The notes under the pieces are model-generated. The model was not told the DNA's origin, did no database searches, and saw nothing but the letters and a program-made list of their open reading frames with translations. 64,000 nt of DNA from Akkermansia sp. (lineage in GTDB: Bacteria; Verrucomicrobiota; Verrucomicrobiia; Verrucomicrobiales; Akkermansiaceae), in assembly GCA_030536145.1 (NCBI GenBank), contig JAUNQN010000009.1, forward strand, positions 1 through 64,000. The letters run 5' to 3'. Position numbers and translations under genes: made by a program. This document shows, one piece after another, positions 21,308-39,178 of this stretch (position 1 is its first letter; the number at the start of each line of letters is the position of its first letter).

Positions 21308-22378
21308 ATGGACTATACAATCGATACCATACGCCCGTTCATCTGCTTTGAAAGCGTGGCCGGCAGCCATGCGCACGGCCTGGCCAGGCCCGGGAGCGAC
21401 GAGGACCTGAAAGGCGTGTACCTGGCCCCGCTGCAGGATATCCTGACCGGCACGGCCCCCCGCGTGGTGAGCGATGAGAAGCAGGACCGCCAGTACACGG
21501 AGATGGGGGAATTCTGCCGCCAGCTCATGCTGAACAACAGCGGGGCCCTGGAGCTGCTGGGCTGCCTGGGGCAGGAGCAGCAGCTGCATGCCGCCCCCTG
21601 GTTCACAGATTTCTTCCGCCGCCACAATTTCCTTTCCCGCAAGTGCCTGCACACCTTCACGGGCAATGCCGAGGCCCAGCTCAAGCGCGTGCTCAGCACG
21701 CACGCCAAGGCCGTATCCCCGCCGGACGAGAGCCTGGGCCTGGCGGATTTCTGCCGCGTGGCCCAGGGAGCGGGCTCCCTGCCCCTGCCCACTTGGCTGG
21801 CCGCGCGCGGGCTTGGCATGAACCAGGTGTGCGCCGCCCCGGTGGCGGACTGCCCGCAGCTCTTCGCCCTGTTCCGGCGGGATACGGCAGCCGGCCTGCT
21901 GGGCCGTACCGGTGCCGCCGTGGCCACCCCGCAGCTGGACGGCACAGAGCCTTTCCTGGCCCACATGCAGGTGCTGGCAGAGGCGTACTCCCGCCACTGC
22001 CGCGCCGTGGCCCAATACCGCCGGTGGCAGCAGGAGCGCAACGGCAAGCGCCTGCAGACGGAGCTGGATGCAGAGCGCGGCGGTGCATACGACTGCAAGC
22101 ACATGGGCCACGTGATACGCCTGCTGCACATGGCGCGGGAGATTGCCGAAAGCGGGGAAATCCGCGTGAAACGCACGGAGGATGCCGCCCACCTGCGCGC
22201 CATACGCGCCGGGGCCGTGCCGCTGGACGACCTGCTGGCAGAGGCCCGCGCCTGCATGGATGCCCTGCCTGCCCTGTATGCAGCCTCACCCCTGCCGGAC
22301 ACACCCTGCCCCGGCGACTGGGAGCAGGACCTGGCCCGAATCCGCATCAAACTCCACACCATGATCAGCCATGAGTGA
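21308..22378 (+). CDS. RlaP-type nucleotidyltransferase domain protein (first of a pair)
   Basis: A 356-residue soluble protein with a polymerase-beta-like nucleotidyltransferase start: FESVAGSHAHGLARPGSDED, where G-S-x(5)-G and the acidic D-x-D-type pair (SDEDLKGVY) form the metal/NTP site. This pattern fits the RlaP/COG3541 family (RNA-repair-associated predicted nucleotidyltransferases). The central and C-terminal regions are helical, with DCKHMGHVIRLLHMAREIAE typical of the family's second half. Substrate is unknown. Its last 8 bases overlap the next gene, a second family member, so the two are probably translationally coupled. Confidence 0.82.
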   Translation: MDYTIDTIRPFICFESVAGSHAHGLARPGSDEDLKGVYLAPLQDILTGTAPRVVSDEKQDRQYTEMGEFCRQLMLNNSGALELLGCLGQEQQLHAAPWFTDFFRRHNFLSRKCLHTFTGNAEAQLKRVLSTHAKAVSPPDESLGLADFCRVAQGAGSLPLPTWLAARGLGMNQVCAAPVADCPQLFALFRRDTAAGLLGRTGAAVATPQLDGTEPFLAHMQVLAEAYSRHCRAVAQYRRWQQERNGKRLQTELDAERGGAYDCKHMGHVIRLLHMAREIAESGEIRVKRTEDAAHLRAIRAGAVPLDDLLAEARACMDALPALYAASPLPDTPCPGDWEQDLARIRIKLHTMISHE

Positions 22379-23147
22379 CATCATTCCCCAAATCCACGCC
22401 CGGCTGGATGCCCTGCAGCGCCACCACGGGTGCAGACTGCTGCTGGCCGCAGAATCCGGCAGCCGCTCCTGGGGCCACGCCTCGCAAGACAGCGACTACG
22501 ACGTGCGCTGCGTCTACTACCACCCGCAGGAAACCTACCTCTCCCTCACCCCGCCGCGGGACACCATCGAATGGGAGCTCAACCCCGTGTTCGACATCAC
22601 CGGCTGGGACCTGCGAAAGGCCCTGCAGCTGGCTCTCAAATCCAACATCAGCGTGTACGAGTGGGCGCACTCACCCATCCTGTACCGCAGCTCCCCCTGG
22701 CTGGAGGAATACCGGGCCGTGGTGGAGGGCGTGATGCAGCCCAGGCGCCTGGCCGCACGCTATGCCGGCATGGCCGCCAGCACCCGCAAGCGCTACCTGG
22801 GCCGCGCCGTGGTGCCCTACAAGGAGTATTTCTACGCCATACGCCCCCTGCTGGCCGCCCGCTGGGTGCTGCAAGAGCGCACCCACGCACCCGTGCGTTT
22901 TGCAGAGCTGCGCGCCGCCCTGCTCCCCGCAGACATGCAGGAGGAGGTGGACACCCTGCTGCACCTGCGCGCCGCCGGCAAGGAGAAGGCCGCCGGCCCC
23001 GCACGCCCCCTGGCAGAATCCTTCATCGACCGCGAACTCCAGTCCATCACCGACTCCCTGGCCGCCACCCCCATGCCGGACCTGCCGGACCCCGCCCCGC
23101 TGGACGACTTTTTCCGCCGCGTCATTAGGATGACGCCCACAGCCTGA
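22371..23147 (+). CDS. RlaP-type nucleotidyltransferase domain protein (second of a pair)
   Basis: A 258-residue protein with the canonical PF10127-like opening AAESGSRSWGHASQDSDYDV (about 25-44): G-S-x-x-W-G and D-x-D catalytic acids. YHPQETYLSLTPPRDTIEW and DLRKALQLALKSNISVYEWA also match this family. Relatives are small predicted nucleotidyltransferases found singly or near RNA-repair genes; no RNA ligase is visible here. It overlaps the preceding paralogue-like gene by 8 bases, and the AT-rich leader of the defence-type island begins shortly after its stop. Confidence 0.87.
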   Translation: MSDIIPQIHARLDALQRHHGCRLLLAAESGSRSWGHASQDSDYDVRCVYYHPQETYLSLTPPRDTIEWELNPVFDITGWDLRKALQLALKSNISVYEWAHSPILYRSSPWLEEYRAVVEGVMQPRRLAARYAGMAASTRKRYLGRAVVPYKEYFYAIRPLLAARWVLQERTHAPVRFAELRAALLPADMQEEVDTLLHLRAAGKEKAAGPARPLAESFIDRELQSITDSLAATPMPDLPDPAPLDDFFRRVIRMTPTA

Positions 23148-23388: not shown

Positions 23389-24483
23389 ATGGACCTCATC
23401 GATACACTCACCCAGCTCTCCGGGCGCATCTCACGCCTGCAGGAGACTATTGAAACGGAAGAAGCCACCAAGAACGCCCTTATCATGCCCGTTATCCAGG
23501 CCCTGGGTTACAACGTGTTCGACCCGTTTGAGGTGGTGCCCGAATTCACCGCAGACGTGGGAACCAAGAAGAACGAGAAGGTGGACTATGTCATCATGCA
23601 GGACGGCAAGCCCTCCATCCTCATTGAATGCAAGTGCATCAACGCTCCGCTGAGCATCAACCACGCCAGCCAGCTCTACCGCTACTTTGCCTGCACGGAA
23701 GCACGCATCGCCATCCTGACCAATGGTATAGACTATCTCTTCTACACCGACATAGAGGCACCCAACGTAATGGACGACAAGCCCTTCTTCGAGTTCAACA
23801 TGCTCAGCATAGACCCCAAGAAAGTAGCCGAACTCAAGAAATTCTCCAAGAGCGCCTATGATTTGGGAAACATCCTCAGCAACGCCTCCGAACTCAAGTA
23901 CAAGAAGCAAATCCACCAGCTGCTGGACGCAGAGCTGGAATCCCCGACCGACGAGTTTGTGCGCCACTTTGCCAAACAGGTGTACAGCGGCATGCTCACC
24001 CCGGAGCGCCGCGCCCAGTTCTCTGCCATCGTTGGCCAGGCCTTCCGGGAGTGGGTGAACTCACTCGTCAGCCGCAGGCTCCAGAATGCCCTGGACGGGG
24101 TCTCCCCGGATATTCTGCCCGCCGCTCCCGCCGCCCCGCCTGCCGCAGCAGCCGAATCTCCCGATGCCTCCTCCGAGGACGAGAAGGATGACGGCATTGT
24201 CACCACGGAGGAGGAACTGGAAGGCTACCGCATCGTCCGCGCCATCCTGGCCCAAGTGGTAGATCCCGCCCGCGTTTTCCTGAAAGACACCAAGAGCTAC
24301 TGCGGCGTCCTCCTGGACCACAACGTCCGCAAGCCCCTCTGCCGCTTCCTCTTTACCAACACGCAGACCACCCTCATCCTGCTGGACAAGGAGCGGAACG
24401 AAAAACGCATCCCCATGGAGTCCGTACTGGACCTCTACAAGCACGCAGAAGAACTTATCGAGTACGCCAAGCTGTACCTGTAA
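23389..24483 (+). CDS. HsdR N-terminal-type nuclease domain protein (no helicase)
   Basis: A 364-residue soluble protein. Residues about 25-140 carry the type I restriction HsdR-N nuclease signature: D66 (KVDYVIM), then E80-x-K82 in ILIECKC, a PD-(D/E)xK site, and the Q95-x3-Y99 motif (SQLYRYF) seen in HsdR nucleases. There is no SF2 helicase, unlike full HsdR (about 1000 residues), and no HsdM or HsdS gene nearby. A Pro/Ala-rich linker (about 240-265) leads to a C-terminal domain of about 100 residues (GYRIVRAILAQVVDPARVF). Related stand-alone proteins are widespread and poorly characterised. It precedes the rdrA-like gene by 107 bases on the same strand and may be an accessory part of the island or an independent defence gene. 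Confidence 0.83.
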   Translation: MDLIDTLTQLSGRISRLQETIETEEATKNALIMPVIQALGYNVFDPFEVVPEFTADVGTKKNEKVDYVIMQDGKPSILIECKCINAPLSINHASQLYRYFACTEARIAILTNGIDYLFYTDIEAPNVMDDKPFFEFNMLSIDPKKVAELKKFSKSAYDLGNILSNASELKYKKQIHQLLDAELESPTDEFVRHFAKQVYSGMLTPERRAQFSAIVGQAFREWVNSLVSRRLQNALDGVSPDILPAAPAAPPAAAAESPDASSEDEKDDGIVTTEEELEGYRIVRAILAQVVDPARVFLKDTKSYCGVLLDHNVRKPLCRFLFTNTQTTLILLDKERNEKRIPMESVLDLYKHAEELIEYAKLYL

Positions 24484-24590: not shown

Positions 24591-27500
24591 ATGAGCACAA
24601 TCACAATTAACCTGGACACACTCGATAGCACAGAAGCTCTGCAAAAGGGCGAACTGATTTTCCAAGAAGAATGCAACCATCTTGTCAAAAAAATCCAAGA
24701 CAAGGTTTGCGAAAACTATACTAAAACATCTTCCAATTCTTCCCGCAACAACAGCCACGGCACAATTACCGATGAAGCACGAAATATTCCGAGCTGCTTC
24801 TTCATTGACGGCGCGCGAGGATCAGGGAAATCCACACTACTGCGCGCCGTACGCGCAGCCCTATTAAATAACGACGACAACAAGACTCCCTCCATATACC
24901 CTCTTGCCGATGTAGATCCTACGGAGTTGGGAAAGGGCGAAAATTTCTTCATCCATCTTCTGGGGAGGGTGTACAAGATTCTCGAAGACAGCTTCAAGGA
25001 ATGGAATATCAATGAAGAGAAAAAAGAAAAGATCCACGCTGCCTTGGAAAATCTGAGACAAATGTCTAGCGGTCTACAGGTACTGATGGATGCAGATGAA
25101 GCCCTGAAGAAAAGCGACACTCCAGATTTTTTTCTGGAAAACTGCATAGACAAATGCGCAAGCAGCGTACACTTGCGGAAAAAGTTGGATGAACTGCTTG
25201 ACCACCTTTCCAAAATCACGCGCGCCGATGTATTCCTTGTCACCATTGATGATGCCGATCTTAATTTCAGCAAATGCGAGGATGTGCTGGAATACATAAG
25301 AAAATACATGCAAAGCCCGAGGCTCATCTTCATCTTTGCCGGGGACATGCAATTATATTCCCATATTGTGAGAGGGATGCAACTGAACAATTTTGGTGAA
25401 AAACTGCTCAACCATGACACTGCAGCTCACAATGACATGCGGAACATGCTTTTAGACAGCATGGAGGAACAATATCTGATGAAAATCTTCCCCGTTGACA
25501 ACAGGATCAAGATACAAAATTTGAAAGACATATTAGAAAACTCGTCAGAAATATATGTCAAATACAAAGGAGGAAAGGAAGATAAAACGCGTATACAAGA
25601 CTTGATTCAAGAGCTAATGGTTAGCCAACTCAACGTCGATTCAGCGCAAATATTTTCAGACTTGATCTATGCACTCCCCCTGCGTTCGTTCCTTTTTCTT
25701 CTGAGATACCTGACTAACAATCCAGAAAACCCAAATTCTCCGGAATCAGCCCAATATATATGGAAAGGAATACAGGAAGTCGCCACCCAGTCCCTTAACA
25801 AATTCAATATCAATTTCACACAAGAAGGAGCAGGAGACATTGAATCCTTGTACAAAAATATATTTCGGTATTATTCGGCTACATTCCAGTCGAATTCGGA
25901 TTTGGCATTGCGGAGAGTGGAGGGCGATGATAGCGTGAGACGAGTTGCCCTATTTTTAAGCGGAGCTGTAAGCCAAGCGACGAAATCTCTAAGTTCCAAG
26001 CTAAAATATTGGTGCTCCGTATTTCCCGTATGGCAGCGAATACGCGCCAACCGCCCTGGTAACCCAAGTTTCACTCGGGTGCTTATTGAACACTACTCAA
26101 AGCAGGAAAAGACACCCTGGGAAAACCTGGCCTGTTCTGCCATGATACCAGAAAATGGTCAACTTCCCGCATATCAAAACGGGCTCATCTGCTTACTCAA
26201 TGAAAATAGTGTCCAGGATTTCGAAAAGGGAACCGAAGGCAAGATAGGATTCCAGGAATTGGACAAAGAGTTACTCAACTACGAGACACCTTCAAATGCA
26301 TCAGAATTACTATATATTGCAGGTATCAATGCATGCCTCTGCCGCGTCGATGACAACACAGGGTCTTTTTTCCATCTCTCCATATACCACCTGTTGATGC
26401 ATATTGCCGAATGGCTGGATTTATATTCCAACATCGAAAACGGGACTAAGGATGAGGAGGTCAGGGCAAGCGCGCTAGCTGCTATCAAGGCAAAGCTAAG
26501 CAGCAAGCATACGGCCCCGGCCATCATAAGAATCCAGGACTGGAACATCAATGACACGAGAAACAGATCTTCCGATGGCACAACACACGTATTCAATAAC
26601 TCGTATCCTGACAATGCCACGAGAAACAGATCTTCCGAAACACACGTATTCTATAACTCGTATCCTGAAAATGTATACGAAGCCCCGGCAGAGGAGATAT
26701 ACCAGTGGCTTCAGAAATACGGCTCCGAATCATATACCTCTTTTGCATATGATTTCCAACAAGCTTGGGATGTCTTTATATCTCAGTGCGCAATGAAAGC
26801 GAACAATTACTCTGTTCAGTACCGGAATGACGAAAAACACCCCAAAGCGGGGAAGATTCTAAAAGATTTCATGACTTCTGTGCATCAGGCATTGGGATGT
26901 TTAAAGCAGACAATAGATTCCCCACAAAAAGACAACACACAGACGGTCTCCTCGCTGGCCGACAGCGTGAAAGCCTTCCCCATGTGGAAGGCTCTCATGG
27001 AAAAAAACAAAAAATTGAATGATATATTGGATACAGCCAATATCGGAGACATGGTGGACCTCACCAAGAAAGAGCACGTTCTTAAACTTAAGCGATTAAA
27101 AGGGGAAATTACCACAAAGGTAGAAGGATGTAAAAAGGTTGTAGAAACGCAGCAGTCTCTCGTAAACCAAACCCAACGGGAGATAGAAGAATTGGAAGAA
27201 CAAACACGATTGGCAGAAGAAGAAATTATGGCAACGGGAAAGGAACTTGACAGATTAGAAGAAGAAGCAGCGGGCTATAGAGAAAGAAGTAACAGGTATG
27301 AACAACAGGCTACGCAAGCATCTAAGAAATTAATAGAATTGTCAAGACTAGCCGCCCTTATAGAAAAGAGCGAAGGAGCAACATCGCCTGACATAGCCCC
27401 GGCACGCCGTGATGAGATACGGGCCCAGCTCAGCATGATAGCAGAAGAGCGCAGAGCTGCCCGTCTGGACATAAGAGAAACAGAGAAAAGCATTTCAGAG

Positions 27501-27737
27501 ATACGGATGCATATGGAGCCATACCGCAGGGAGGTGAATAGGAACAGACAACAAATCAGGCGAAACACCTATATATTAACCTCAAAGAAAAAAAACTTGG
27601 AGCATCAATTGGCCGAACACGAAACGGCAATCAAAAGACTGGCCAGGATGCAGAGAATGGAAAAGAAATATTTCCAGCTCTATCTCAAGGCCAAAAACAA
27701 TCTCTGTCTCAATACTCAAAACAATAAACAGCAGTAA
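24591..27737 (+). CDS. rdrA: RdrA-like P-loop ATPase of a RADAR-type anti-phage system
   Basis: The 1048-residue protein has Walker A GARGSGKST (74-82), Walker B VFLVTIDDAD (214-223) and a sensor-like strand LIFIFAGD (245-252), as in KAP/AAA+-like ATPases. It ends 5 bases before a very large adenosine-deaminase-like gene; this ATPase-deaminase pair is the defining layout of RADAR, where RdrA forms a ring that associates with RdrB. Residues about 480-820 are helical with no domain I recognise, and about 830-1045 form a long coiled coil rich in Glu/Lys/Arg. A tandem 19-21-residue repeat sits near residues 654-693. Base composition is clearly more AT-rich than neighbouring genes, indicating transfer. 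The RdrA name rests on the Walker motifs, size and partner, not on an alignment. Confidence 0.8.
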   Translation: MSTITINLDTLDSTEALQKGELIFQEECNHLVKKIQDKVCENYTKTSSNSSRNNSHGTITDEARNIPSCFFIDGARGSGKSTLLRAVRAALLNNDDNKTPSIYPLADVDPTELGKGENFFIHLLGRVYKILEDSFKEWNINEEKKEKIHAALENLRQMSSGLQVLMDADEALKKSDTPDFFLENCIDKCASSVHLRKKLDELLDHLSKITRADVFLVTIDDADLNFSKCEDVLEYIRKYMQSPRLIFIFAGDMQLYSHIVRGMQLNNFGEKLLNHDTAAHNDMRNMLLDSMEEQYLMKIFPVDNRIKIQNLKDILENSSEIYVKYKGGKEDKTRIQDLIQELMVSQLNVDSAQIFSDLIYALPLRSFLFLLRYLTNNPENPNSPESAQYIWKGIQEVATQSLNKFNINFTQEGAGDIESLYKNIFRYYSATFQSNSDLALRRVEGDDSVRRVALFLSGAVSQATKSLSSKLKYWCSVFPVWQRIRANRPGNPSFTRVLIEHYSKQEKTPWENLACSAMIPENGQLPAYQNGLICLLNENSVQDFEKGTEGKIGFQELDKELLNYETPSNASELLYIAGINACLCRVDDNTGSFFHLSIYHLLMHIAEWLDLYSNIENGTKDEEVRASALAAIKAKLSSKHTAPAIIRIQDWNINDTRNRSSDGTTHVFNNSYPDNATRNRSSETHVFYNSYPENVYEAPAEEIYQWLQKYGSESYTSFAYDFQQAWDVFISQCAMKANNYSVQYRNDEKHPKAGKILKDFMTSVHQALGCLKQTIDSPQKDNTQTVSSLADSVKAFPMWKALMEKNKKLNDILDTANIGDMVDLTKKEHVLKLKRLKGEITTKVEGCKKVVETQQSLVNQTQREIEELEEQTRLAEEEIMATGKELDRLEEEAAGYRERSNRYEQQATQASKKLIELSRLAALIEKSEGATSPDIAPARRDEIRAQLSMIAEERRAARLDIRETEKSISEIRMHMEPYRREVNRNRQQIRRNTYILTSKKKNLEHQLAEHETAIKRLARMQRMEKKYFQLYLKAKNNLCLNTQNNKQQ
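26549..26668 (+). repeat. Two-copy in-frame tandem duplication inside rdrA
   Basis: Copy 1 (26549-26611, 63 bp) and copy 2 (26612-26668, 57 bp) encode TRNRSSDGTTHVFNNSYPDN and TRNRSSETHVFYNSYPEN. They differ by a 6-bp deletion and a few substitutions, so the frame is kept. Confidence 0.9.
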
Positions 27738-27742
27738 CAACA

Positions 27743-30292
27743 ATGTCCTCCATCCTGAGCACAGTTCCGCTCTATGTCCTGTCCAACTCCATGGCGCTTA
27801 ACAAATGGCTGGACAATGAGGGAAACAGCATCGACTGGAAGCTGCCTGCATATATTGCCTTTGAGCAGCGCGATTCGTCCCGTCCCGAGCATGTATTCTC
27901 GCAAAGGTGGAGCGAGTTTGATAGGAGATACATGGGAACAAAAACCATCAGCCTGATGCAAGCCATCAGGCTGATGGCGGAGGGCTACCTGGAATTTGCC
28001 AACAGGCGCCTGTACGTACGCAACCAACAGGAAGAGGGAGAAGAAGACAGACCAGGCGACGGCCATTTGAGGTACGGCAAGTCCGCGCACTTCTCCCGCT
28101 GGCAGAATATCCGGGCCAGAATGACTACCTGGCCTATCAAGCTGTATATGCTGCACAAGCACCACTGCCCGGCATGTTATTTCCTGGCGCACCCGTTGGA
28201 ACCGGTGGTGGCAGATTTCATACGCACAGACGGGCTTAACGAGACGCACCTACACCTTAACGGCTGCCGATACCCAGAGGAAGAGTGGTTGCACGACCTG
28301 TATGCTATCCGTGCTTTTGTGGAGCGGGAAACCAAGGATTTCAAGAAGTCCCGTTTCAAGGAGCACTATGCGTTGGTCAATCCGGAGCTCACTCCCAAGC
28401 TGCTGGGCAACCGCATGAAACTGGCACGCGTGCTGCGCGAGAGCATCATCAGCCTGGTGGAATGTGATACAGGCAGGGGAGTTCACTCAGGAAGGGCAGA
28501 GAAAATCATAGGAGAAGCCCAAGCTACAACCAGGCGCTATTCACTCAAACCGGACTTTTTCACGGTTGATGCTCCAGCGGTCCTGGCACCTCAAAGCCTG
28601 AAGGCGCGTATGCAGCAGGAAATGCACATGTGGATGGATGCCTTCCGGCTGCTGGAGAACGCGAGCACATTCCCATACAAGCAGCCCCTGCAGACCATGC
28701 TGCACCTGTACCTGCTCATGCAAAACGAGCATATTGCGCTAAACAGCCATACGGAGCACCGCAAGGGATTCGAGGCATTCTCTGTCAGCAACGACCACCA
28801 GAAACTATCCGTCGGGAATGCAGAGTACTATGAGAACACCTTCTACAATATGATAAAAACCGCCGCAGGGGATCGCAATTACATAGAAGTCAGGCTTACG
28901 CCAAAGGCCCTGAGAGAAAAGAAAGGGCTCTTTCTGCGCTCCTGTTCACGTGCATGGAACAAGCGGCAGGGAGAACTGAAGAAGGAAATGCAGATGAGGG
29001 GAGATCTGCTGCCGCAGTCTCTTCCACAACCCCAACTGGTACTGGTGGGCCATATGATCAAAACGCCACCCAAGCAAAACAAAGTCCTGCTGCAATCTCC
29101 CCTGTTTGAAGCAGAGTTCCGGACCCACATGAACGAGGCAGCCCTGATGTCGGAAGACGCCCGCTACCTGATGGAGCGGGACCGCATTCCGGTAGGTATT
29201 GACGCAGCCAATTCTGAAATGAACCAACCGCCGGAGGTATTTGCCCCGGCATACAGGCTTTTTGAACAGAAGAGCGGCATATCACACAAGACATACCACT
29301 GCGGGGAGGATTTCCTGCATCTCATCAGCGGCATACGCGCCGTGTACGATTCCGTCACCTTTCTGGACCTCCGAAACGGCAACCGCATCGGCCACGGCAT
29401 ATCCATCGGCATTCACCCCGGTGAATGGGTAGGTTCCATGCCGTCCAAGCTGCTGCTCACCATGAGGGAGTGGCTGCTGGACATGATATTTGTATGGAAA
29501 CTGCTCCACGAACACAATCCGGCAGCCGCAGCCAAGGCGGAGCACGAGGCCCTGCGCGTGGCAGGGCTGGTGTTTGAATCGGCAACAAAGGGAAGAAATT
29601 TGCCATACGGCACCATTCACACCCTGGCGGATTTCTTTGATATGCGGCAGTTTGTACCCACACACGTCAAGAAGAATCTGGACACGGAGCTTCCTATCAG
29701 TGAGTTCCAAGAATCAGAGCACAAGCTTATCAGCAAGAGGATTGAACAGCACGGCAATACCCCGGCGGAGCTGTACTGGCTATGGAGTACAAACAGCGAG
29801 TGCAGGAAAGAGCAAGAAAAGACGATAGAGGTGAAAACCGATTTTCTGGGCATACCGGAGCTGCTGGAACTGCAGCAGCGGGTCCAGCAGCTCATAGCGG
29901 TCAGGGATGTTGTGATAGAGACGCTTCCTGTCAGCAACCTGCGCATCGGGCAGATCCGCCACATCCAGGATCACCACGTACTGCGCTGGCTGAAGGTGGA
30001 CGGCTACACCGTGGAGGGCGATGCAGACATGAATATCTGCATGGGGTCCGATGATCCGGGAGTGTTTGCCACAAATATCAAAAACGAGTACTACCACCTG
30101 TACATGGCCCTGCGCAACGCGGGGCTCCCGGCGCATGAAGCCATAGGAAAACTCCGCCGCGTGAACGACGCAGGCCGCATATACGCCTTTCGGGAACTGC
30201 CGGACATGAATCCCACACCGTTCAAGCTCACCAGCCTGCTGAACAATATTCCTAGGAAGAAGAGCCTTTGGGAACGCATGAAGACTGACTGA
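27743..30292 (+). CDS. rdrB: RdrB-like adenosine deaminase-fold protein of a RADAR-type system
   Basis: The 849-residue protein is about twice the size of metabolic adenosine deaminases but keeps their zinc-site motifs in order: H169-L-H171 in NETHLHLNG, H519-C-G-E522 (YHCGEDF; classical HAGE), H551 in RIGHG, and D770-D771 in GSDDPG (classical S/T-DDP). Long inserts lie between them, and HHCPAC (140-145) may add a metal ligand pair. RdrB proteins of RADAR are such enlarged deaminases; they form large shells and convert adenosine to inosine in nucleotides or RNA during infection, leading to growth arrest. All catalytic positions visible here are intact, apart from Asp-to-Asn in the HxHxDG motif. 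The gene starts 5 bases after rdrA and its last 41 bases overlap the convergent hemC end. Confidence 0.88.
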   Translation: MSSILSTVPLYVLSNSMALNKWLDNEGNSIDWKLPAYIAFEQRDSSRPEHVFSQRWSEFDRRYMGTKTISLMQAIRLMAEGYLEFANRRLYVRNQQEEGEEDRPGDGHLRYGKSAHFSRWQNIRARMTTWPIKLYMLHKHHCPACYFLAHPLEPVVADFIRTDGLNETHLHLNGCRYPEEEWLHDLYAIRAFVERETKDFKKSRFKEHYALVNPELTPKLLGNRMKLARVLRESIISLVECDTGRGVHSGRAEKIIGEAQATTRRYSLKPDFFTVDAPAVLAPQSLKARMQQEMHMWMDAFRLLENASTFPYKQPLQTMLHLYLLMQNEHIALNSHTEHRKGFEAFSVSNDHQKLSVGNAEYYENTFYNMIKTAAGDRNYIEVRLTPKALREKKGLFLRSCSRAWNKRQGELKKEMQMRGDLLPQSLPQPQLVLVGHMIKTPPKQNKVLLQSPLFEAEFRTHMNEAALMSEDARYLMERDRIPVGIDAANSEMNQPPEVFAPAYRLFEQKSGISHKTYHCGEDFLHLISGIRAVYDSVTFLDLRNGNRIGHGISIGIHPGEWVGSMPSKLLLTMREWLLDMIFVWKLLHEHNPAAAAKAEHEALRVAGLVFESATKGRNLPYGTIHTLADFFDMRQFVPTHVKKNLDTELPISEFQESEHKLISKRIEQHGNTPAELYWLWSTNSECRKEQEKTIEVKTDFLGIPELLELQQRVQQLIAVRDVVIETLPVSNLRIGQIRHIQDHHVLRWLKVDGYTVEGDADMNICMGSDDPGVFATNIKNEYYHLYMALRNAGLPAHEAIGKLRRVNDAGRIYAFRELPDMNPTPFKLTSLLNNIPRKKSLWERMKTD

Positions 30293-31329: not shown

Positions 31330-34300
31330 TCAGATATCCCAGGCATCCAGCCACTTGAAGGCCACCACGCGCATCTTGCGGCCCAGGCGGCGGTTCACTT
31401 CCGTCAGCCCCTTGTCGCGGGTGCCGTCGGACTTGTACTCCGCCACGGAGGGCGCGTTCACCGGGCTCACGTAGTCGATGGTGCGCTGCACGGTGGCCTC
31501 GCACCAGGCCTGGGCCAGGATACGCTTGTCTGCAGCACGCACGCAGCCGTATGCACGCACGGTGAAGGTGTCGTCTCTCACGGTCAGGATATTGCCCAGA
31601 GAGGCCAGCACATCAGACTGGATGAGGTAGCCGGGGGCAGCGGTGTGCATGGAGCCCTCATCCGCCTGCGGGAACTTGAACAGGCGGCCTGCGCCGGGGG
31701 CGGAGAGCATCACCTCGTTGAAATCGGCGTTGATGTCCGTGGCATCGATGGCGGCCTGCAGGGCACCCTTCAGGGCATCCTCGCCGCCCTCGCTGTCCAG
31801 GCGGCGGTTGATGAAGTCCGACATGCTCAGGAAGGGACCGCGCTTGCGGACCTGCTTCACCATCTCCTCCGCCAGGCGGGCGATGGAGTTCTCATCCAGC
31901 TTGCGGACCTCGCCCCAGGCGGAGGTCATGCCGGTGTTGGAGCGGAGGGAGGAGGACCCCTCCATCACACTGTAGCCGCCCAGGGAATCCAGGCTCTTGT
32001 CCGTGGTGGAGGCCATGAAGCGGGAGAAGATGACATCGGAATCGTTCTTGCCGGGTTCCACCAGGGACATCTTGCCATCCTTCAGGCAAACCAGCTTGCG
32101 CTTGGCCAGCCCCTGCAGGGTGGCGGTCCAGGCAGCCACGGAGGTGGAGTTCACGTTGAACCCGCCGTCAATCATCAGGTACTGGGCAATGTACTTCCAG
32201 CCGTCGCCGGCCATGAGCTGGTTGATAATCTGCTCATCGCGGTAGGGGGTGTTGGACTTCTTGTAGCGGGCCACGGGCAGCGTCTCGGTCCCCTTCATGA
32301 ACTTGGAGAGGGTATCCTGGGCCTGTACCTTCTTGCCCGCGCCAGGCATATCGGAAACGGAGGAGCAGAACCAGGTATCCCACATGGCGTCATTAATCAG
32401 CAGGCCGTGGTCAAAGAAATCACCGAAAATGTGGACGTTGCCCGTGATGGAGGAGGAGAGCTCCTTCTGCTCAAAGTAGGCGTACACATCACCGGCGGGG
32501 ATGCAGGGATCCGCAAAGGCATTGCCGATGCCCACGCCGGGCACGCCGGCCTGGTACTGCATGCGGCGCAGCTGGGCCATACCGCCGCGGTCACCGCCGT
32601 TGGTCTTGTACCAGCCGGGCTGCAGGCGCATGCCGGAGAACCCGGCCAGGGAGAACGGGGGATGCACGGGCAGCTCCATCACGGAGGCGAAGGAAACCTG
32701 CTCACCGCCATCACCGGAGATACCCAGGATACCGTTGCCGCCGATGTTGTCCAGCGGGGCGGAGGAAAGGCCGGAACCCACGTTCAGGGAAGCGAACTGG
32801 TACGGGTGGTAGCGGCGGGTCTGGTCATCCGGGTCCAGGATGGCGGAGCCCCAGAACGCGGGGCTCGAGTGCTGCCATATCTTGGTACGGAAATCCTTGT
32901 TGGGGTACACCTTGGTATCCAGGGTAACATTGGCAGACTTGGCACCCACGCCCAGCGAGCAGAAGTAGTACGGGTTGCTGGTATCGTTCATACGGTCGCT
33001 CCAGAACTCGCGGTTGCTGACGGAGAAGTGCTTCTTGACCACATTCTCGTCCGGGTCGGCGTTCGTCTCAGTCTGAGCGTCCTCCGGGGAGAACCAGCCG
33101 AGCAGCACACGCTGTGGAGACATGCCGCCCTTGTCGTTCAGGGCAGCGGAATCGGAGGGGTCAGGCGTTTCCGTCTCCTCCATGCCGCCGAAACCGGCCA
33201 CAATGGTAAGGCAATCGGCACGCCCCGGGGCCAGGGACCAGCCGTGCGGGTCCGCCGGCAGCTTCAAGGCATCAGTCTTGCCCGGCACAAAATCACCGCT
33301 GCCGATGGCCAGCTCCGTGTTCCAGAGGGCCTTGCCGCCGTCATCGGTGGCCAGCTCCTTGCCGGAGACGTTGGAGTACAGGCGCATGGCATAGCCGGAG
33401 ACGGCAGAGGGATTGTAGCCCACGCGCCAAGGGTTGGTGCGCACGTCCTGTCTCCTGTCCACGGTACGCCCGGTGGCAGGGGAGAAGAAAAGGATTTCGC
33501 CGGGCTGGAACACCAGTTCCCCCATGCCGCCGCTGCCGGCCTCGAAGAAGTCGCCGCTGTCTCGGCCAAAGCTGAAGGTGCCGGTAGCGGCACGCTGTCT
33601 CACCATTTCCTGCCAGCCGGGAGCCAGGGCCATGTTGTCCATGTCACGGATACCGTTGAACTTGCGGAGCCAGACCTGGCGGTAGGGGGCGGAGAAGGAC
33701 CAGAGCTTGTGGGCGGGGATGCGCATGGGCACATTGTAGGGGTTCCACCACAGCACCATGGGGGCATAGGCAATGCACAGGTTGTAGGTCAGGTTCTTGG
33801 GGTCCGTGTTCTGGGGCTCGGAAACCAGGGCGTAGTTGCTGACGAAAGCCAGCATCACGGGGGTACGGGCGTAGCCGGCTGTCTCGCTGCCGGCATCCAT
33901 CATGGCGCGGGAGTCATAGAAGGACTGCCTGCCGCCGGTTTCCGGTGTGGGCTGCGTGGCTGCGTTGATATCCGTGGCGCTGCCGCTCATGCGGGTGAAG
34001 AGGTTGCCGTTCAGGGAGCCCTGCAGGCGGGCGGCAAATGCGTCGTCCGTCTTGGAACCGTCCGGCCAGCAGTTGTAGTAGGCGTACAGGTTCTGCCATG
34101 AGCCGATGGGCATGGCATCCTCCGTACCCTTGGGCACGTCCTCGCCCTCTGCAATGGGGCAGTCCTGGCTACTGCGGCAGGCGTATTCCGTATCGCTCAG
34201 GCTCTTCTTGTTGAGCAGCAGGCACAGGTCCTGCTTCAGGCCGCCGGTGCGGGCATTCGTGGGCAGGGAGTAGGAGCTGACCGTGGCATCAAAGAAATAC

Positions 34301-35166
34301 GGCATGCCGGCGGGCTTGGTGGTACCGGCCAGCAGGGGGAGGCTGGGCATGGTGAGCACGCGCTCCGGGCGGTCCGCCTGCTCCGGCAGGAAATTCAGCT
34401 CGGAATCCGGGGAAAAGACGGCCGTGGGCGTGCTCCAGGTGCGGTGCAGCACCTCCACGGGGTCGCTGGTCTTCTCCGGCTCCTTCAGGGCCACCTTGGC
34501 CTTCTGGTTCTCACCGCACACCCACCAGGCATACAGGCTGGTGTTGGGATCATGCTTGCTCAGGGCCGGCATGGGAATCATGTCCGCATACACGTACTCG
34601 GAGGGGGAAACGCGGTTGCCCAGCGTACCCTCGCCCACCAGGCAGATGCGCTTGCCGGGCTTGCGGGCGCTCAGCTGGGAGGCGGAGCTGATGGAGCGGA
34701 CATCATCCGGCTCATTGGAGGAGATGAGCCAGCGGCGGAACATGCTGCTGCGGTGGTTGGAATAGGTGGACTGGATCCTGCCCTTACCGGAAAGGCTCTT
34801 GCCGTAGATGGGGCCGTCGAAGCTGTTCCACACGCCCAGCAGGTGGCTACCGGGGGCAGAGCCCTCATCCGTAAGAATGGAGGAGCTGGCGGAGACACGC
34901 TGGTCCGGGCCGAGTTCGATCTGCAGCTGGGCCACGGCGGCATCCAGCCCCACCAGGGCCTGCTGGCGCGCCTGCGCCTGCAGCACCTCCTGCATGGAGA
35001 CACGGTTCTGGGATGCGGACATGGCCAGGATGCCTACCGACAGCAGGGCCAGCAGCATCATCAGGGTCAGGGTGGCAATCAGGGCAAACCCCTTGCGCTT
35101 CCTGGCCTTGGGTTTGGAAGAAAGCTGTCTTTTCAGTCGCGCGTATGGAACACTTGTATAACGCAT
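31330..35166 (-). CDS. Giant PilX/GspK-like prepilin protein, Verru_Chthon cassette A type (copy 1)
   Basis: A 1278-residue protein beginning with a class III-like prepilin signal: basic SKPKARKRKGFALIATLTLM, then LMMLLALLSVGILAMSASQNR. Cleavage after KG and anchoring by the hydrophobic helix are expected; position +5 is Ile-Ala rather than Glu, as in PilX/GspK-type minor pilins. The rest is a large periplasmic region full of aromatic, Gly and Asn residues. RKRGPFLSMSDFINRRL near residue 1130 resembles the GspK-like helical repeat. Size and N-terminus fit Verru_Chthon cassette protein A, but B, C and D cassette genes are not adjacent. ATG 35166 was chosen over one at 35187 because the paralogue begins at the same residue (MRY) and a promoter lies 7 bases before it. 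Confidence 0.8.
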   Translation of the reverse strand: MRYTSVPYARLKRQLSSKPKARKRKGFALIATLTLMMLLALLSVGILAMSASQNRVSMQEVLQAQARQQALVGLDAAVAQLQIELGPDQRVSASSSILTDEGSAPGSHLLGVWNSFDGPIYGKSLSGKGRIQSTYSNHRSSMFRRWLISSNEPDDVRSISSASQLSARKPGKRICLVGEGTLGNRVSPSEYVYADMIPMPALSKHDPNTSLYAWWVCGENQKAKVALKEPEKTSDPVEVLHRTWSTPTAVFSPDSELNFLPEQADRPERVLTMPSLPLLAGTTKPAGMPYFFDATVSSYSLPTNARTGGLKQDLCLLLNKKSLSDTEYACRSSQDCPIAEGEDVPKGTEDAMPIGSWQNLYAYYNCWPDGSKTDDAFAARLQGSLNGNLFTRMSGSATDINAATQPTPETGGRQSFYDSRAMMDAGSETAGYARTPVMLAFVSNYALVSEPQNTDPKNLTYNLCIAYAPMVLWWNPYNVPMRIPAHKLWSFSAPYRQVWLRKFNGIRDMDNMALAPGWQEMVRQRAATGTFSFGRDSGDFFEAGSGGMGELVFQPGEILFFSPATGRTVDRRQDVRTNPWRVGYNPSAVSGYAMRLYSNVSGKELATDDGGKALWNTELAIGSGDFVPGKTDALKLPADPHGWSLAPGRADCLTIVAGFGGMEETETPDPSDSAALNDKGGMSPQRVLLGWFSPEDAQTETNADPDENVVKKHFSVSNREFWSDRMNDTSNPYYFCSLGVGAKSANVTLDTKVYPNKDFRTKIWQHSSPAFWGSAILDPDDQTRRYHPYQFASLNVGSGLSSAPLDNIGGNGILGISGDGGEQVSFASVMELPVHPPFSLAGFSGMRLQPGWYKTNGGDRGGMAQLRRMQYQAGVPGVGIGNAFADPCIPAGDVYAYFEQKELSSSITGNVHIFGDFFDHGLLINDAMWDTWFCSSVSDMPGAGKKVQAQDTLSKFMKGTETLPVARYKKSNTPYRDEQIINQLMAGDGWKYIAQYLMIDGGFNVNSTSVAAWTATLQGLAKRKLVCLKDGKMSLVEPGKNDSDVIFSRFMASTTDKSLDSLGGYSVMEGSSSLRSNTGMTSAWGEVRKLDENSIARLAEEMVKQVRKRGPFLSMSDFINRRLDSEGGEDALKGALQAAIDATDINADFNEVMLSAPGAGRLFKFPQADEGSMHTAAPGYLIQSDVLASLGNILTVRDDTFTVRAYGCVRAADKRILAQAWCEATVQRTIDYVSPVNAPSVAEYKSDGTRDKGLTEVNRRLGRKMRVVAFKWLDAWDI

Positions 35167-35173
35167 ATTCCCT

Positions 35174-35203
35174 AGAATACACACCAAGGGGCACCGCCGT
35201 CAA
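35174..35203 (-). promoter_or_regulatory. Promoter of prepilin-like copy 1, predicted leaderless, overlapping a hairpin
   Basis: Minus strand: -35 TTGACG (35203-35198), 18-nt spacer, -10 TATTCT (35179-35174), 7 nt to the ATG. The -35 sits inside an inverted repeat (CCGCCGTC 35194-35201 with GACGGCGG 35217-35224) that is followed by five T on the plus strand. Confidence 0.6.
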
Positions 35204-35254
35204 GCCAAAACAGGCTGACGGCGGCAATTTTTAGTGATATTCAGGGAAAGCGTA

Positions 35255-38200
35255 TCAGATATCCCAGGCATCCAGCCACTTGAAGGCCACCACGCGCATC
35301 TTGCGGCCCAGGCGGCGGTTCACTTCCGTCAGCCCCTTGTCGCGGGTGCCGTCGGACTTGTACTCCGCCACGGAGGGCGCGTTCACCGGGCTCACGTAGT
35401 CGATGGTGCGCTGCACGGTGGCCTCGCACCAGGCCTGGGCCAGGACGCGCTTGTCTGCGGCGCGCACGCAGCCGTAGGCACGCACGGTAAAGGTATCGTC
35501 TCTCACGGTCAGGATGTTGCCCAGGGAGGCCAGCACATCTGACTGGATGAGGTAGCCGGGGGCAGCGGTGTGCATGGAGCCCTCGTCCGCCTTGGGGAAC
35601 TTGAAGAGCTTGCCGGCATCCGGGGAGCTCAGCATCACCTCGTTGAATTCGGCGTTGATATCCGTGGCATCGATGGCGGCCTGCAGGGCGCCCTTCAGGG
35701 CTTCCTCGCCGCCCTCGCTGTCCAGGCGACGGTTGATGAAGTCCGACATGCTCAGGAAGGGGCCGCGCTTGCGGACCTGCTTCACCATCTCCTCCGCCAG
35801 GCGGGCGATAGAGCTCTCGTCCAGCTTGCGGACCTCCCCCCAGGCGGAGGCCATGGAGTTGCTCATCTTGCGGAGCTGGGAGGAACCTTCCATCACGCTG
35901 TAGCCGCCCAGGGAATCCAGGCTCTTATCCGTGGTGGAGGCCATGAAGCGGGAGAAGAGCACCTCGTCGTCGCTCTTGCCGGGCTCCACCAGGGCCAGCT
36001 TGCCGTCCTTCAGGCAGACCAGCTTGCGCTTGGCCAGGCCCTGCAGGGTGGCGGTCCAGGCGGGAACGGAGACGGAGTTCACGTTGAAACCGCCGTCAAT
36101 CATCAGATACTCGGCAATGTACTTCCAGCCGTCGCCGCCCATGAGACGGGCGATAACCTGCTGGTCACGGTAGGGGGTGTTCGTCTTCTTGTAGCGTGCC
36201 ACGGGCAGCTGCTCCGTGTTGGACATGAACTTGGCGAGGGTGTCCTCTGCCTTGACCTTGTTGCTGCTGCTCGGCATATCGGAGACGGAGGAGCAGAACC
36301 AGGAGTCCCACAGGTTGTCGTTGATCAGCAGGGCGTGGTCAAAGAAATCACCGAAGATGTGGGTGTTGCCGGTCACGCCGCTGGCCATCTCCTTCTGCTC
36401 AAAGTAGGCGTACACGTCACCTGCGGGGATGCAGGGATCCGCAAAGGAGTTGCCGATGCCCACGCCGGGCACGCCGGCCTGGTACTGCATGCGGCGCAGC
36501 TGGGCCACACCCACCTTGTCATTGCCGCTGGCCTTGTACCAGCCGGGCTGCAGGCGCATACCGGCAAAACCAGCCAGGGAGAACGGGGGATGCACAGGCA
36601 GCTCCAGCACGGAGGCGTAGGATACCTGTTCGCCGTCGGAGGTAATGCCCAGCAGGCCGTTGTTGCCCACGTTGTCCAGCGGGGAGGCGCTCATGCCACC
36701 GCTGGTGGAAAGCATGGCCAGCTGGTAGGGGTGGTAGCGGCGGGTCTGGTCATCCGGCTCCAGCAGAGCGGAACCCCAGAAGGCGGGGCTGGAATGCTGC
36801 CAGATCTTGGTGCGGAAATCCTTCTCGGGATAGATGCGGGTATCCACATTCGTGTTGGAGGACTTGGCCACCACACCCAGGGCCGTCACAAAGTACGGCA
36901 TCTTGGGGTCGTTCATGAACTCGCCGAAGGTATCGAGCTCACTGATGGGAATGGAAACGCAGTGGCGGGGATTTGCCACATTGATAGCCTTGTCGTTGAA
37001 TTCCTCCCGGCGACCATCCTCCGGGGAAATCCAGTCCAGCAGCATACGCTGGGGAGACATGCCGGCCTTGTCGTCCAGGGCAGCCTCGTCCGTCGCGGGA
37101 ACATTGTTGGACTCGGACATGCCGCCGTAACCGGAAACCACGGTGAAGGCCTGGGCATGGCCGGGAGCAAGTTTCCAGCCGTGCGGGTCCACATAGTTGC
37201 CGCTGTAGTCCCTGGCACCGGGTTCATAGGTATCCAGACCGATGCCCAGCTGGAAGCAATAGCGGCCGGGGCGTGAGCCGTCCGCCGTACGCAGGGAATT
37301 GAACGGCAGGTAGTTGCCGGCACCCATGCGGTAGCCGGAGATGGCATTGACATGGCAGCCAACGGACCAGGGGTTGCAGTGTACCATGTCCTTCTTGTCG
37401 TCCGTACGGGCAGCAGAGGGAGAGAAGAAGAGAATCTCACCGGGCTGGAAGACGATTTCACCGTTGCCGCCACCCTCTGCCTGAAAATAGTCACCACCAT
37501 CCACACCGAAGGTATCACCCTTCAGCACGGCGTAGTTGTATTCCTGGTTGTGGAATTCATCCCAGAAGTCGGAAACAATCTGGCCGGCATGCTTGCGGAG
37601 CCAAATCTGGCGGAAAGGCACGGAGAAAGCCCAGAGCTTCTTGCCGGAGACTCGCATGGGCACGTTGTAGGGGTTCCACCACAGCACCAGCGGGGCGTAA
37701 GACACGAAAGCGCCATGGGGCGTACCCTGGGTCCAGTATTCCCTTGTGCCCCCGTAGAAATACATCATGGTGTAGATGGCTCCACCGGAAGTTGCCTGCG
37801 TGTGGGGGTCGTTCGGGTCTAGGGGAGACACGGCCATGGCGTAGCTGCTCACAAAGGCAAGCATGACCGGGGTACGGGCATAGCCGGAGGCGGTGGAGGT
37901 GCCGGAATCCAGCAGGGAGCGGCTGTCAAAGTAGGACTTGCGGCCGTTGGTATCCGGGGACGGCAGGGAAGCACCGGTATCATCCGTGGCGCTGCCGCTC
38001 ATGCGGGTGAAGAGGTTGCCGTTCAGGGAGCCCTGCAGGCGGGCGGCAAATGCGTCGTCCGTCTTGGAACCGTCCGGCCAGCAGTTGTAGTAGGCGTACA
38101 GGTTCTGCCATGAGCCGATGGGCATGGCATCCTCCGTACCCTTGGGCACGTCCTCGCCCTCTGCAATGGGACAGTCCTGGCTGCTGCGGCAGGCGTACTC

Positions 38201-39178
38201 GGTATCTGTCAGGGTCTTCTTGTTGAAGAGCAGGCAGAGGTCCTGCTTCAGGCCGCCGGTGCGGGCATTCGTGGGCAGGGAGTATGAGCTGACCGTGGCA
38301 TCAAAGAAGTACGGCATACCGGCGGGCTTGGTGGTGCCGGCCAGCAGGGGGAGGGAGGGCATGGTGAGCACGCGCTCCGGGCGGTCCGCCTGCTCCGGCA
38401 GGAAGTTCAGCTCGGAATCCGCGGCAAACTTGGCAGAAGGGGTGTTCCAGGTGCGGTGCAGCACCTCCACGGGGTCGCTGGTCTTCTCCGGCTCCTTCAG
38501 GCCCACCTTGGCCTTCTGGTTCTCACCGCACACCCACCAGGCATACAAGCCAGTATTGGGGTCATGCTTGCTCAGGGCCGGCATGGGAATCATGTCCGCA
38601 TACACGTACTCCGAGGGGGAGACGCGGTTGCCCAGCGTGCCCTCTCCCACCAGGCAGATGCGCTTGCCGGGCTTGCGGGCGCTCAGCTGGGAGGCGGCGT
38701 TGATGGAGCGGGTGTCTTCCGGCTCGTTGGAGGAAATGAGCCAGCGGCGGAACATGCTGCTGCGGTGGTTGGAATAGGTGGACTGTATCCTGCCCTTGCC
38801 GGAAAGGCTCTTGCCGTATATGGGGCCGTCAAAACTGTTCCACACGCCCAGCAGGTGGCTGCCGGGGGCGGAGCCCTCCTCCGAGAGGATGGCGGAGCTG
38901 GCAGAGACACGCTGGTCCGGGCCGAGTTCAATCTGGAGCTGGGCCACGGCGGCATCCAGCCCCACCAGGGCCTGCTGGCGCGCCTGCGCCTGCAGCACCT
39001 CCTGCATGGAGACACGGTTCTGGGATGCGGTCATGGCCAGGATGCCTACCGACAACAGGGCCAGAAGCATCATCAGGGTCAGGGTCGCAATCAGGGCAAA
39101 GCCCTTGCATTTTCTGGCCTTGGGTTTGGAGGAAAGCTTTTTCTTGAGACGCGCGTACGCAATACTATTGTAACGCAT
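35255..39178 (-). CDS. Giant PilX/GspK-like prepilin protein, Verru_Chthon cassette A type (copy 2)
   Basis: A 1307-residue tandem paralogue of the preceding gene, with the same prepilin-like start (KARKCKGFALIATLTLM; LMMLLALLSVGILAMTASQNR). The N-terminal third and C-terminal third are almost identical to copy 1, while about residues 395-690 differ in sequence and length (net 29 residues longer here), including SGGAIYTMMYFYGGTREYW and DEFHNQEYNYAVLKG, absent from copy 1. The two could form one cell-surface or pilus-tip complex or be alternative versions of one component. The promoter at 39188-39215 is its own, so each copy seems separately transcribed. Confidence 0.8.
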   Translation of the reverse strand: MRYNSIAYARLKKKLSSKPKARKCKGFALIATLTLMMLLALLSVGILAMTASQNRVSMQEVLQAQARQQALVGLDAAVAQLQIELGPDQRVSASSAILSEEGSAPGSHLLGVWNSFDGPIYGKSLSGKGRIQSTYSNHRSSMFRRWLISSNEPEDTRSINAASQLSARKPGKRICLVGEGTLGNRVSPSEYVYADMIPMPALSKHDPNTGLYAWWVCGENQKAKVGLKEPEKTSDPVEVLHRTWNTPSAKFAADSELNFLPEQADRPERVLTMPSLPLLAGTTKPAGMPYFFDATVSSYSLPTNARTGGLKQDLCLLFNKKTLTDTEYACRSSQDCPIAEGEDVPKGTEDAMPIGSWQNLYAYYNCWPDGSKTDDAFAARLQGSLNGNLFTRMSGSATDDTGASLPSPDTNGRKSYFDSRSLLDSGTSTASGYARTPVMLAFVSSYAMAVSPLDPNDPHTQATSGGAIYTMMYFYGGTREYWTQGTPHGAFVSYAPLVLWWNPYNVPMRVSGKKLWAFSVPFRQIWLRKHAGQIVSDFWDEFHNQEYNYAVLKGDTFGVDGGDYFQAEGGGNGEIVFQPGEILFFSPSAARTDDKKDMVHCNPWSVGCHVNAISGYRMGAGNYLPFNSLRTADGSRPGRYCFQLGIGLDTYEPGARDYSGNYVDPHGWKLAPGHAQAFTVVSGYGGMSESNNVPATDEAALDDKAGMSPQRMLLDWISPEDGRREEFNDKAINVANPRHCVSIPISELDTFGEFMNDPKMPYFVTALGVVAKSSNTNVDTRIYPEKDFRTKIWQHSSPAFWGSALLEPDDQTRRYHPYQLAMLSTSGGMSASPLDNVGNNGLLGITSDGEQVSYASVLELPVHPPFSLAGFAGMRLQPGWYKASGNDKVGVAQLRRMQYQAGVPGVGIGNSFADPCIPAGDVYAYFEQKEMASGVTGNTHIFGDFFDHALLINDNLWDSWFCSSVSDMPSSSNKVKAEDTLAKFMSNTEQLPVARYKKTNTPYRDQQVIARLMGGDGWKYIAEYLMIDGGFNVNSVSVPAWTATLQGLAKRKLVCLKDGKLALVEPGKSDDEVLFSRFMASTTDKSLDSLGGYSVMEGSSQLRKMSNSMASAWGEVRKLDESSIARLAEEMVKQVRKRGPFLSMSDFINRRLDSEGGEEALKGALQAAIDATDINAEFNEVMLSSPDAGKLFKFPKADEGSMHTAAPGYLIQSDVLASLGNILTVRDDTFTVRAYGCVRAADKRVLAQAWCEATVQRTIDYVSPVNAPSVAEYKSDGTRDKGLTEVNRRLGRKMRVVAFKWLDAWDI

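What the first reader, a model, noticed from the sequence alone, without database searches (positions are those of the whole stretch)
24591..30292. RADAR-like anti-phage pair (rdrA-rdrB) in an Akkermansiaceae-like genome
A 1048-residue P-loop protein (Walker A 74-82, Walker B 214-223) is followed after 5 bases by an 849-residue adenosine-deaminase-fold protein with all catalytic motifs (HLH 169-171, HCGE 519-522, H551, DD 770-771). This is the gene order and size class of RADAR, a defence system in which RdrB deaminates adenosine in nucleotides or RNA. The long C-terminal coiled coil of RdrA (about 830-1045) and the low GC of rdrA are notable.
Basis: partly seen in the sequence, partly recalled or inferred. 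Interest (0 to 1): 0.9.

Follow-up and report, generated by a model that had tools for sequence, protein, structure and literature searches.

The report
RADAR anti-phage gene pair in Akkermansia
An Akkermansia gut bacterium carries an intact two-gene RADAR anti-phage system (a ring-forming ATPase plus a deaminase that probably spoils the cell's ATP pool on infection); the system is already known, and the one unusual part is a long coiled-coil arm on the ATPase.

Summary
The finding is correct. Window 24591-27737 encodes an RdrA (1048 aa) and 27743-30292 an RdrB (849 aa), with 5 bases between them. Sequence search, fold search and phylogeny all place both proteins in RADAR, and RdrB lies far from metabolic adenosine deaminases. 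Every catalytic residue checked against the solved E. coli RADAR is kept or conservatively changed (Thr to Ser in Walker A). The pair scores below NCBIfam's RdrA/RdrB cut-offs, but so does E. coli RADAR that matches the solved structures, so the cut-offs do not discriminate.

This is a standalone rdrAB system in an Akkermansia species. It lies in a low-GC block missing from its two nearest relatives, so it is accessory and probably horizontally acquired. RADAR occurs in 9 of 76 Akkermansia species examined, in two divergent clades.

The one distinctive feature is the RdrA C-terminus: a predicted coiled-coil hairpin of about 225 residues with no detectable homolog in 52 other RdrA proteins or in 288 other genomes of the phylum. 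RdrA C-termini are known to vary widely, so I rate this a new member of a known kind. Function is inferred from homology; no experiment was run.

The parts
24591..27737 (+). rdrA, 1048-aa AAA+ ATPase of RADAR
   Evidence: phmmer to E. coli RdrA 8hr7 E=4e-38; NF041743 E=3e-36; PADLOC RdrA E=9e-27; Foldseek to 8hr8 E=3e-29
24810..24836 (+). RdrA Walker A, GARGSGKST (residues 74-82)
   Evidence: G79/K80/S81 align with E. coli G81/K82/T83; G74, R76, G77, G79 and K80 invariant in 52 RdrA
25230..25259 (+). RdrA Walker B, VFLVTIDDAD (residues 214-223)
   Evidence: D220/D221 align with E. coli D221/D222; invariant in 52 RdrA
26549..26673 (+). in-frame tandem repeat (57-base period, 2.1 copies) in a low-confidence loop of RdrA
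   Evidence: TRF; pLDDT under 50 at residues 665-686
27054..27731 (+). RdrA C-terminal coiled-coil hairpin (residues 822-1047; predicted helices 822-878, 884-929, 937-997, 1003-1047)
   Evidence: AlphaFold2 model; no homologous tail among 52 other RdrA or 288 other genomes of the phylum
27743..30292 (+). rdrB, 849-aa adenosine-deaminase-fold subunit of RADAR
   Evidence: phmmer to E. coli RdrB 8fnv E=7e-94 over residues 116-818; NF041744 E=1e-27; Foldseek to 8hr7_B E=1.4e-36
28247..28255 (+). RdrB zinc ligands H169 and H171 (HLH)
   Evidence: align with E. coli H152/H154; invariant in 56 RdrB
29297..29308 (+). RdrB HCGE: zinc ligand H519 and catalytic E522
   Evidence: align with E. coli H498/E501; invariant in 56 RdrB
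29393..29395 (+). RdrB H551
   Evidence: aligns with E. coli H530; invariant in 56 RdrB
30050..30055 (+). RdrB D770-D771
   Evidence: align with E. coli D748/D749; D770 invariant, D771 nearly so, in 56 RdrB

Best explanation
This is an intact standalone RADAR (rdrAB) anti-phage operon, probably horizontally acquired by an Akkermansia species. Inferred from characterised homologs: RdrA forms an AAA+ ring (heptameric in E. coli) that docks as a funnel on an RdrB shell (dodecameric in E. coli). An unknown signal of phage infection, possibly sensed by the variable RdrA C-terminus, activates the complex. RdrB then deaminates ATP and dATP to ITP and dITP, which stops phage replication. In this protein the C-terminus carries a long coiled-coil hairpin that most likely projects from the ring as a sensor or partner-docking arm. 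Shown here: gene order, homology, fold and intact active sites. Inferred: assembly, substrate, trigger and the role of the arm.
For: RdrB E=7e-94 and RdrA E=4e-38 to E. coli proteins of solved structure. Predicted folds match RADAR structures above all else. Catalytic residues conserved. Gene order rdrA-rdrB with a short gap is shared by nearly all of the 80 best relatives. RdrB nests inside the RADAR tree with full support for its clade. E. coli RADAR matching the solved structures gets similar PADLOC and NCBIfam scores. Accessory status: both flanks align to near relatives but the block between them does not, and GC is low. Mechanism from PMC9994260.
Against: Scores fall below the curated NCBIfam cut-offs of 600 and 800 bits, though the E. 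coli reference fails them as well. The glutamates E595-E597 at the three-fold interface of E. coli RdrB are not kept, but they are also absent from most RdrB outside the E. coli lineage. No expression or phage data exist. The function of the arm is unsupported beyond its shape.
Confidence: 0.93

Rival explanations
1. A RADAR homolog whose main action is adenosine-to-inosine editing of RNA, with RdrA threading RNA to RdrB, as first proposed for the Citrobacter system.
For: The original description proposed RNA editing (summarised in PMC7699616). Some RdrA structures are titled 'RNA-loading state'.
Against: PMC9994260 found little editing but a massive ITP and dITP rise, and the RdrB active site resembles mononucleotide deaminases. 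The window keeps that same site.
Confidence: 0.07
2. The pair is a degraded or domesticated RADAR that no longer defends.
For: Single copy with no close relative (at most 40% RdrB identity), and a tandem duplication inside rdrA.
Against: Both frames are intact, all catalytic residues are kept, and the repeat is in frame in a loop of low predicted order.
Confidence: 0.06
3. A metabolic adenosine or AMP deaminase next to an unrelated KAP or STAND ATPase by chance.
For: Pfam alone names only A_deaminase, AAA_22 and KAP_NTPase above cut-off.
Against: RdrB aligns to RdrB over about 700 residues, beyond the deaminase core, and metabolic deaminases score far worse. The adjacency is conserved across phyla.
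Confidence: 0.01

Closest known systems
E. coli RADAR (RdrA 947 aa, RdrB 799 aa; PDB 8fnt, 8fnv, 8fnw, 8hr7-8hrc)
   Same: Gene order, both folds, all catalytic residues, two-gene form
   Different: About 20% (RdrA) and 30% (RdrB) identity; E. coli RdrA has no long C-terminal hairpin (its tail after the conserved P797-equivalent is 99 aa, against 252 here); three-fold-axis glutamates not kept
Akkermansia sp. RGIG6177 (L024), Akkermansia sp. RGIG1758 (L025) and Clostridia RGIG7280 (L023) RADAR
   Same: Fully supported RdrB clade with the window; rdrA directly upstream of rdrB in L024 and L025 (the L023 contig ends upstream of rdrB)
   Different: Only 35-40% RdrB identity; RdrA tails unrelated (L024 long but different, L025 only 31 aa from P797 on; L023 RdrA not on contig)
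Second Akkermansia RADAR clade (L027, L030, L037, L039, L043, L046, L047, L059)
   Same: rdrA-rdrB pair in the same genus
   Different: Separate RdrB clade, RdrB about 890-930 aa, short RdrA tails; seven of the eight loci sit inside polysaccharide gene clusters
S. suis RADAR (RdrA 8fnu)
   Same: RdrA architecture found by fold search (E=6.8e-9)
   Different: More distant from the window than E. coli RADAR is, yet reported to be functional (PMC9994260)

Membership tests
RADAR (rdrAB) | RdrA homology with Walker A, Walker B, sensor 1 and sensor 2 | tested here: met
RADAR (rdrAB) | RdrB homology with His tetrad and catalytic Glu | tested here: met
RADAR (rdrAB) | rdrA and rdrB encoded in tandem | tested here: met
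   5-base gap; same arrangement in nearly all of 80 relatives
RADAR (rdrAB) | RdrB groups inside the RADAR family tree | tested here: met
RADAR (rdrAB) | NCBIfam curated cut-offs NF041743 / NF041744 | tested here: not met
   125 and 97 bits against 600 and 800; E. coli RADAR matching the solved structures also fails with 129 and 119 bits, so this is a database threshold and not a defining property
RADAR (rdrAB) | Three-fold interface glutamates (E595-E597 in E. coli RdrB) | tested here: not met
   Aligned residues A614, R618, N619; also missing in most RdrB outside the E. coli lineage, so not defining
RADAR (rdrAB) | Heptameric RdrA docked on dodecameric RdrB | not testable with these tools
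   needs purified proteins and cryo-EM
RADAR (rdrAB) | ATP/dATP to ITP/dITP conversion and phage protection | not testable with these tools
   needs an assay
Csx27- or SLATT-associated RADAR subtypes | Accessory membrane-protein gene beside rdrAB | tested here: not met
   No accessory gene: an HsdR_N gene lies upstream and hemC converges downstream; hence the standalone subtype as described in PMC7699616

The most novel reading that the evidence does not exclude
The RdrA C-terminal coiled-coil hairpin (two arms of roughly 105 residues, about 15 nm if fully extended) is a lineage-specific sensor or docking arm that takes over the usual C-terminal lobe function and activates RADAR through a phage or host partner not used by E. 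coli RADAR.
Probability: 0.15. Interest if true: 0.5.

Novelty: new member of a known kind. Interest (0 to 1): 0.3.

Why it matters
How RADAR senses phage is unknown, and the RdrA C-terminus has been proposed as the sensor (PMC9994260). This protein keeps the ATPase core but carries an unrelated coiled-coil C-terminus, which makes it a natural test case for tail-swap experiments in laboratory strains. RADAR in 9 of 76 Akkermansia species examined, against a published rate below 1% of genomes, suggests it is commoner in gut Akkermansia than surveys imply.

Tried and rejected
Viral contigs and phage records gave no relative; plasmids gave three distant ones. The HsdR_N gene upstream (23389-24483) was considered as a third subunit and rejected: 74-75% identical copies stand at other loci in three other Akkermansia, with no RADAR gene found beside them. 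The RlaP pair upstream was rejected as part of the system because it is conserved in near relatives that lack RADAR. A home for the coiled-coil tail was sought in 289 genomes of the phylum, in PDB sequences and in 52 RdrA; nothing significant was found. A first tail search used an out-of-frame reference and was repeated correctly. Two paper searches for RADAR in Akkermansia found nothing.

Full report
Observation. The two ORFs exist exactly as described: 24591-27737 (1048 aa) and 27743-30292 (849 aa), + strand, 5 bases apart. rdrA has 43.9% GC and rdrB 54.5%, in a window of 62.5%.

Identity of the proteins. RdrB matches the E. coli RdrB of solved structure with E=7e-94 over residues 116-818. 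RdrA matches E. coli RdrA with E=4e-38. AlphaFold2 models were built on alignments of 56 RdrB and 52 RdrA (RdrB pLDDT 88, pTM 0.90; RdrA pLDDT 79, pTM 0.67). Both match RADAR structures above anything else: RdrB E=1.4e-36 with TM about 0.82, metabolic adenosine deaminases following at about 5e-5; RdrA E=3e-29, with the first 20 matches all RdrA from E. coli or S. suis. The models used alignments that contain RADAR relatives, so the fold match is not wholly independent of the sequence match.

Catalytic residues. Alignment with the E. coli operon L168 (E. coli MSI001, whose proteins match the PDB chains over their full length at more than 1850 bits) shows that the RdrA Walker A and B, sensor 1 and sensor 2 residues and the RdrB His tetrad and catalytic Glu named in PMC9994260 are all kept, apart from a Thr-to-Ser change in Walker A. 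Most are invariant or nearly so across the family.

Database thresholds. NCBIfam scores are below cut-off (125 of 600 bits, 97 of 800). The E. coli reference scores 129 and 119, and its PADLOC scores (74 and 89 bits) resemble the window's (92 and 65 bits). The cut-offs therefore reflect narrow models, not a failed membership test.

Distribution. A scan of GTDB genomes found 330 places that encode relatives; the best 80 were kept, and nearly all of those have rdrA directly upstream of rdrB (exceptions are mostly contig ends). Searched with the RdrA, 9 of 76 Akkermansia species carry it, at 11 loci. In a sample of 388 genomes of the phylum, 7 matched the RdrB family, 3 of them from this genus. 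PMC9994260 reports RADAR in 270 of about 38,000 genomes. The RdrB tree puts the window with two other Akkermansia and one Clostridia sequence at full support; a second Akkermansia clade of 8 is separate. That tree used the quick method (SH-aLRT support only), and several rows have unusual letter composition.

Genomic setting. In the two nearest relatives, hemC and the pilin-like gene beside it are conserved on one side and the RlaP genes on the other, but on separate contigs; nothing matches the stretch between about window 23122 and 30304. The HsdR_N-rdrA-rdrB block is therefore accessory. No virus-like contig or phage record carries it. There is no tRNA in the window, and I saw no integrase beside it. 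How it moved is unknown.

The coiled-coil arm. Residues 822-1047 are predicted as four long helices with breaks at 879-883 and 998-1002 and a turn at 930-936, which fits an antiparallel hairpin. Hydrophobic periodicity near 3.5 residues is significant for two helices, marginal for one and absent in one, so the coiled-coil reading is good but not uniform. From the conserved P797 on, the window has 252 residues, the longest of the 53 RdrA compared; E. coli has 99 and the second Akkermansia clade under 90. L061 and L024 have tails of similar length (243 and 242) but no detectable homology to it. Because RdrA is poorly conserved outside the ATPase core (PMC9994260), this is a variant domain in a known protein, not a new system.

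Mechanism. Established for homologs (PMC9994260): RdrA heptamer on RdrB dodecamer, ATP/dATP to ITP/dITP on infection, both active sites needed. For this locus the mechanism is inferred. The E. coli three-fold-interface glutamates are not conserved here, so details of shell assembly may differ.

Verdict. A genuine, complete, probably functional standalone RADAR; a divergent new member of a known kind with an unusual RdrA tail.

Noticed in passing
L017-L020, L163-L165 (other Akkermansia): Seven RADAR loci of a separate Akkermansia clade sit inside polysaccharide or nucleotide-sugar gene clusters (GT2, GtrII, cytidylyltransferase, HMGL-like aldolase, HAD phosphatase). A defence system sitting among surface-glycan genes seems unusual.
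   Followed up: partly
L163:11909-14632: A KAP-family ATPase weakly similar to QatA directly follows rdrB in one Akkermansia genome.
   Followed up: no
G014 (L017, L020) and G443 (L166, L167): Two Akkermansia genomes each carry two RADAR loci; in G443 they belong to the two different clades.
   Followed up: partly
window 23389-24483 (+): Solo HsdR_N-domain gene of 364 aa; 74-75% identical copies at unrelated loci in three other Akkermansia. Possibly a separate defence gene.
   Followed up: partly
window 21308-23147 (+): Two adjacent RlaP-family nucleotidyltransferases (RNA repair), conserved in near relatives without RADAR.
   Followed up: partly
window 31330-39178 (-): Two tandem paralogs of about 1300 aa with a pilin-like hydrophobic N-terminus and no NCBIfam match; one homolog beside hemC in relatives.
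   Followed up: no
window 26549-26673 (+): In-frame tandem duplication (57-base period) inside rdrA, in a loop of low predicted order.
   Followed up: no
window 27944-27978: Near-perfect inverted repeat (15 pairs) inside the start of rdrB, terminator-like on the - strand.
   Followed up: no
window 30252-30292: The 3' ends of rdrB (+) and hemC (-) overlap by 41 bases in a convergent arrangement.
   Followed up: no
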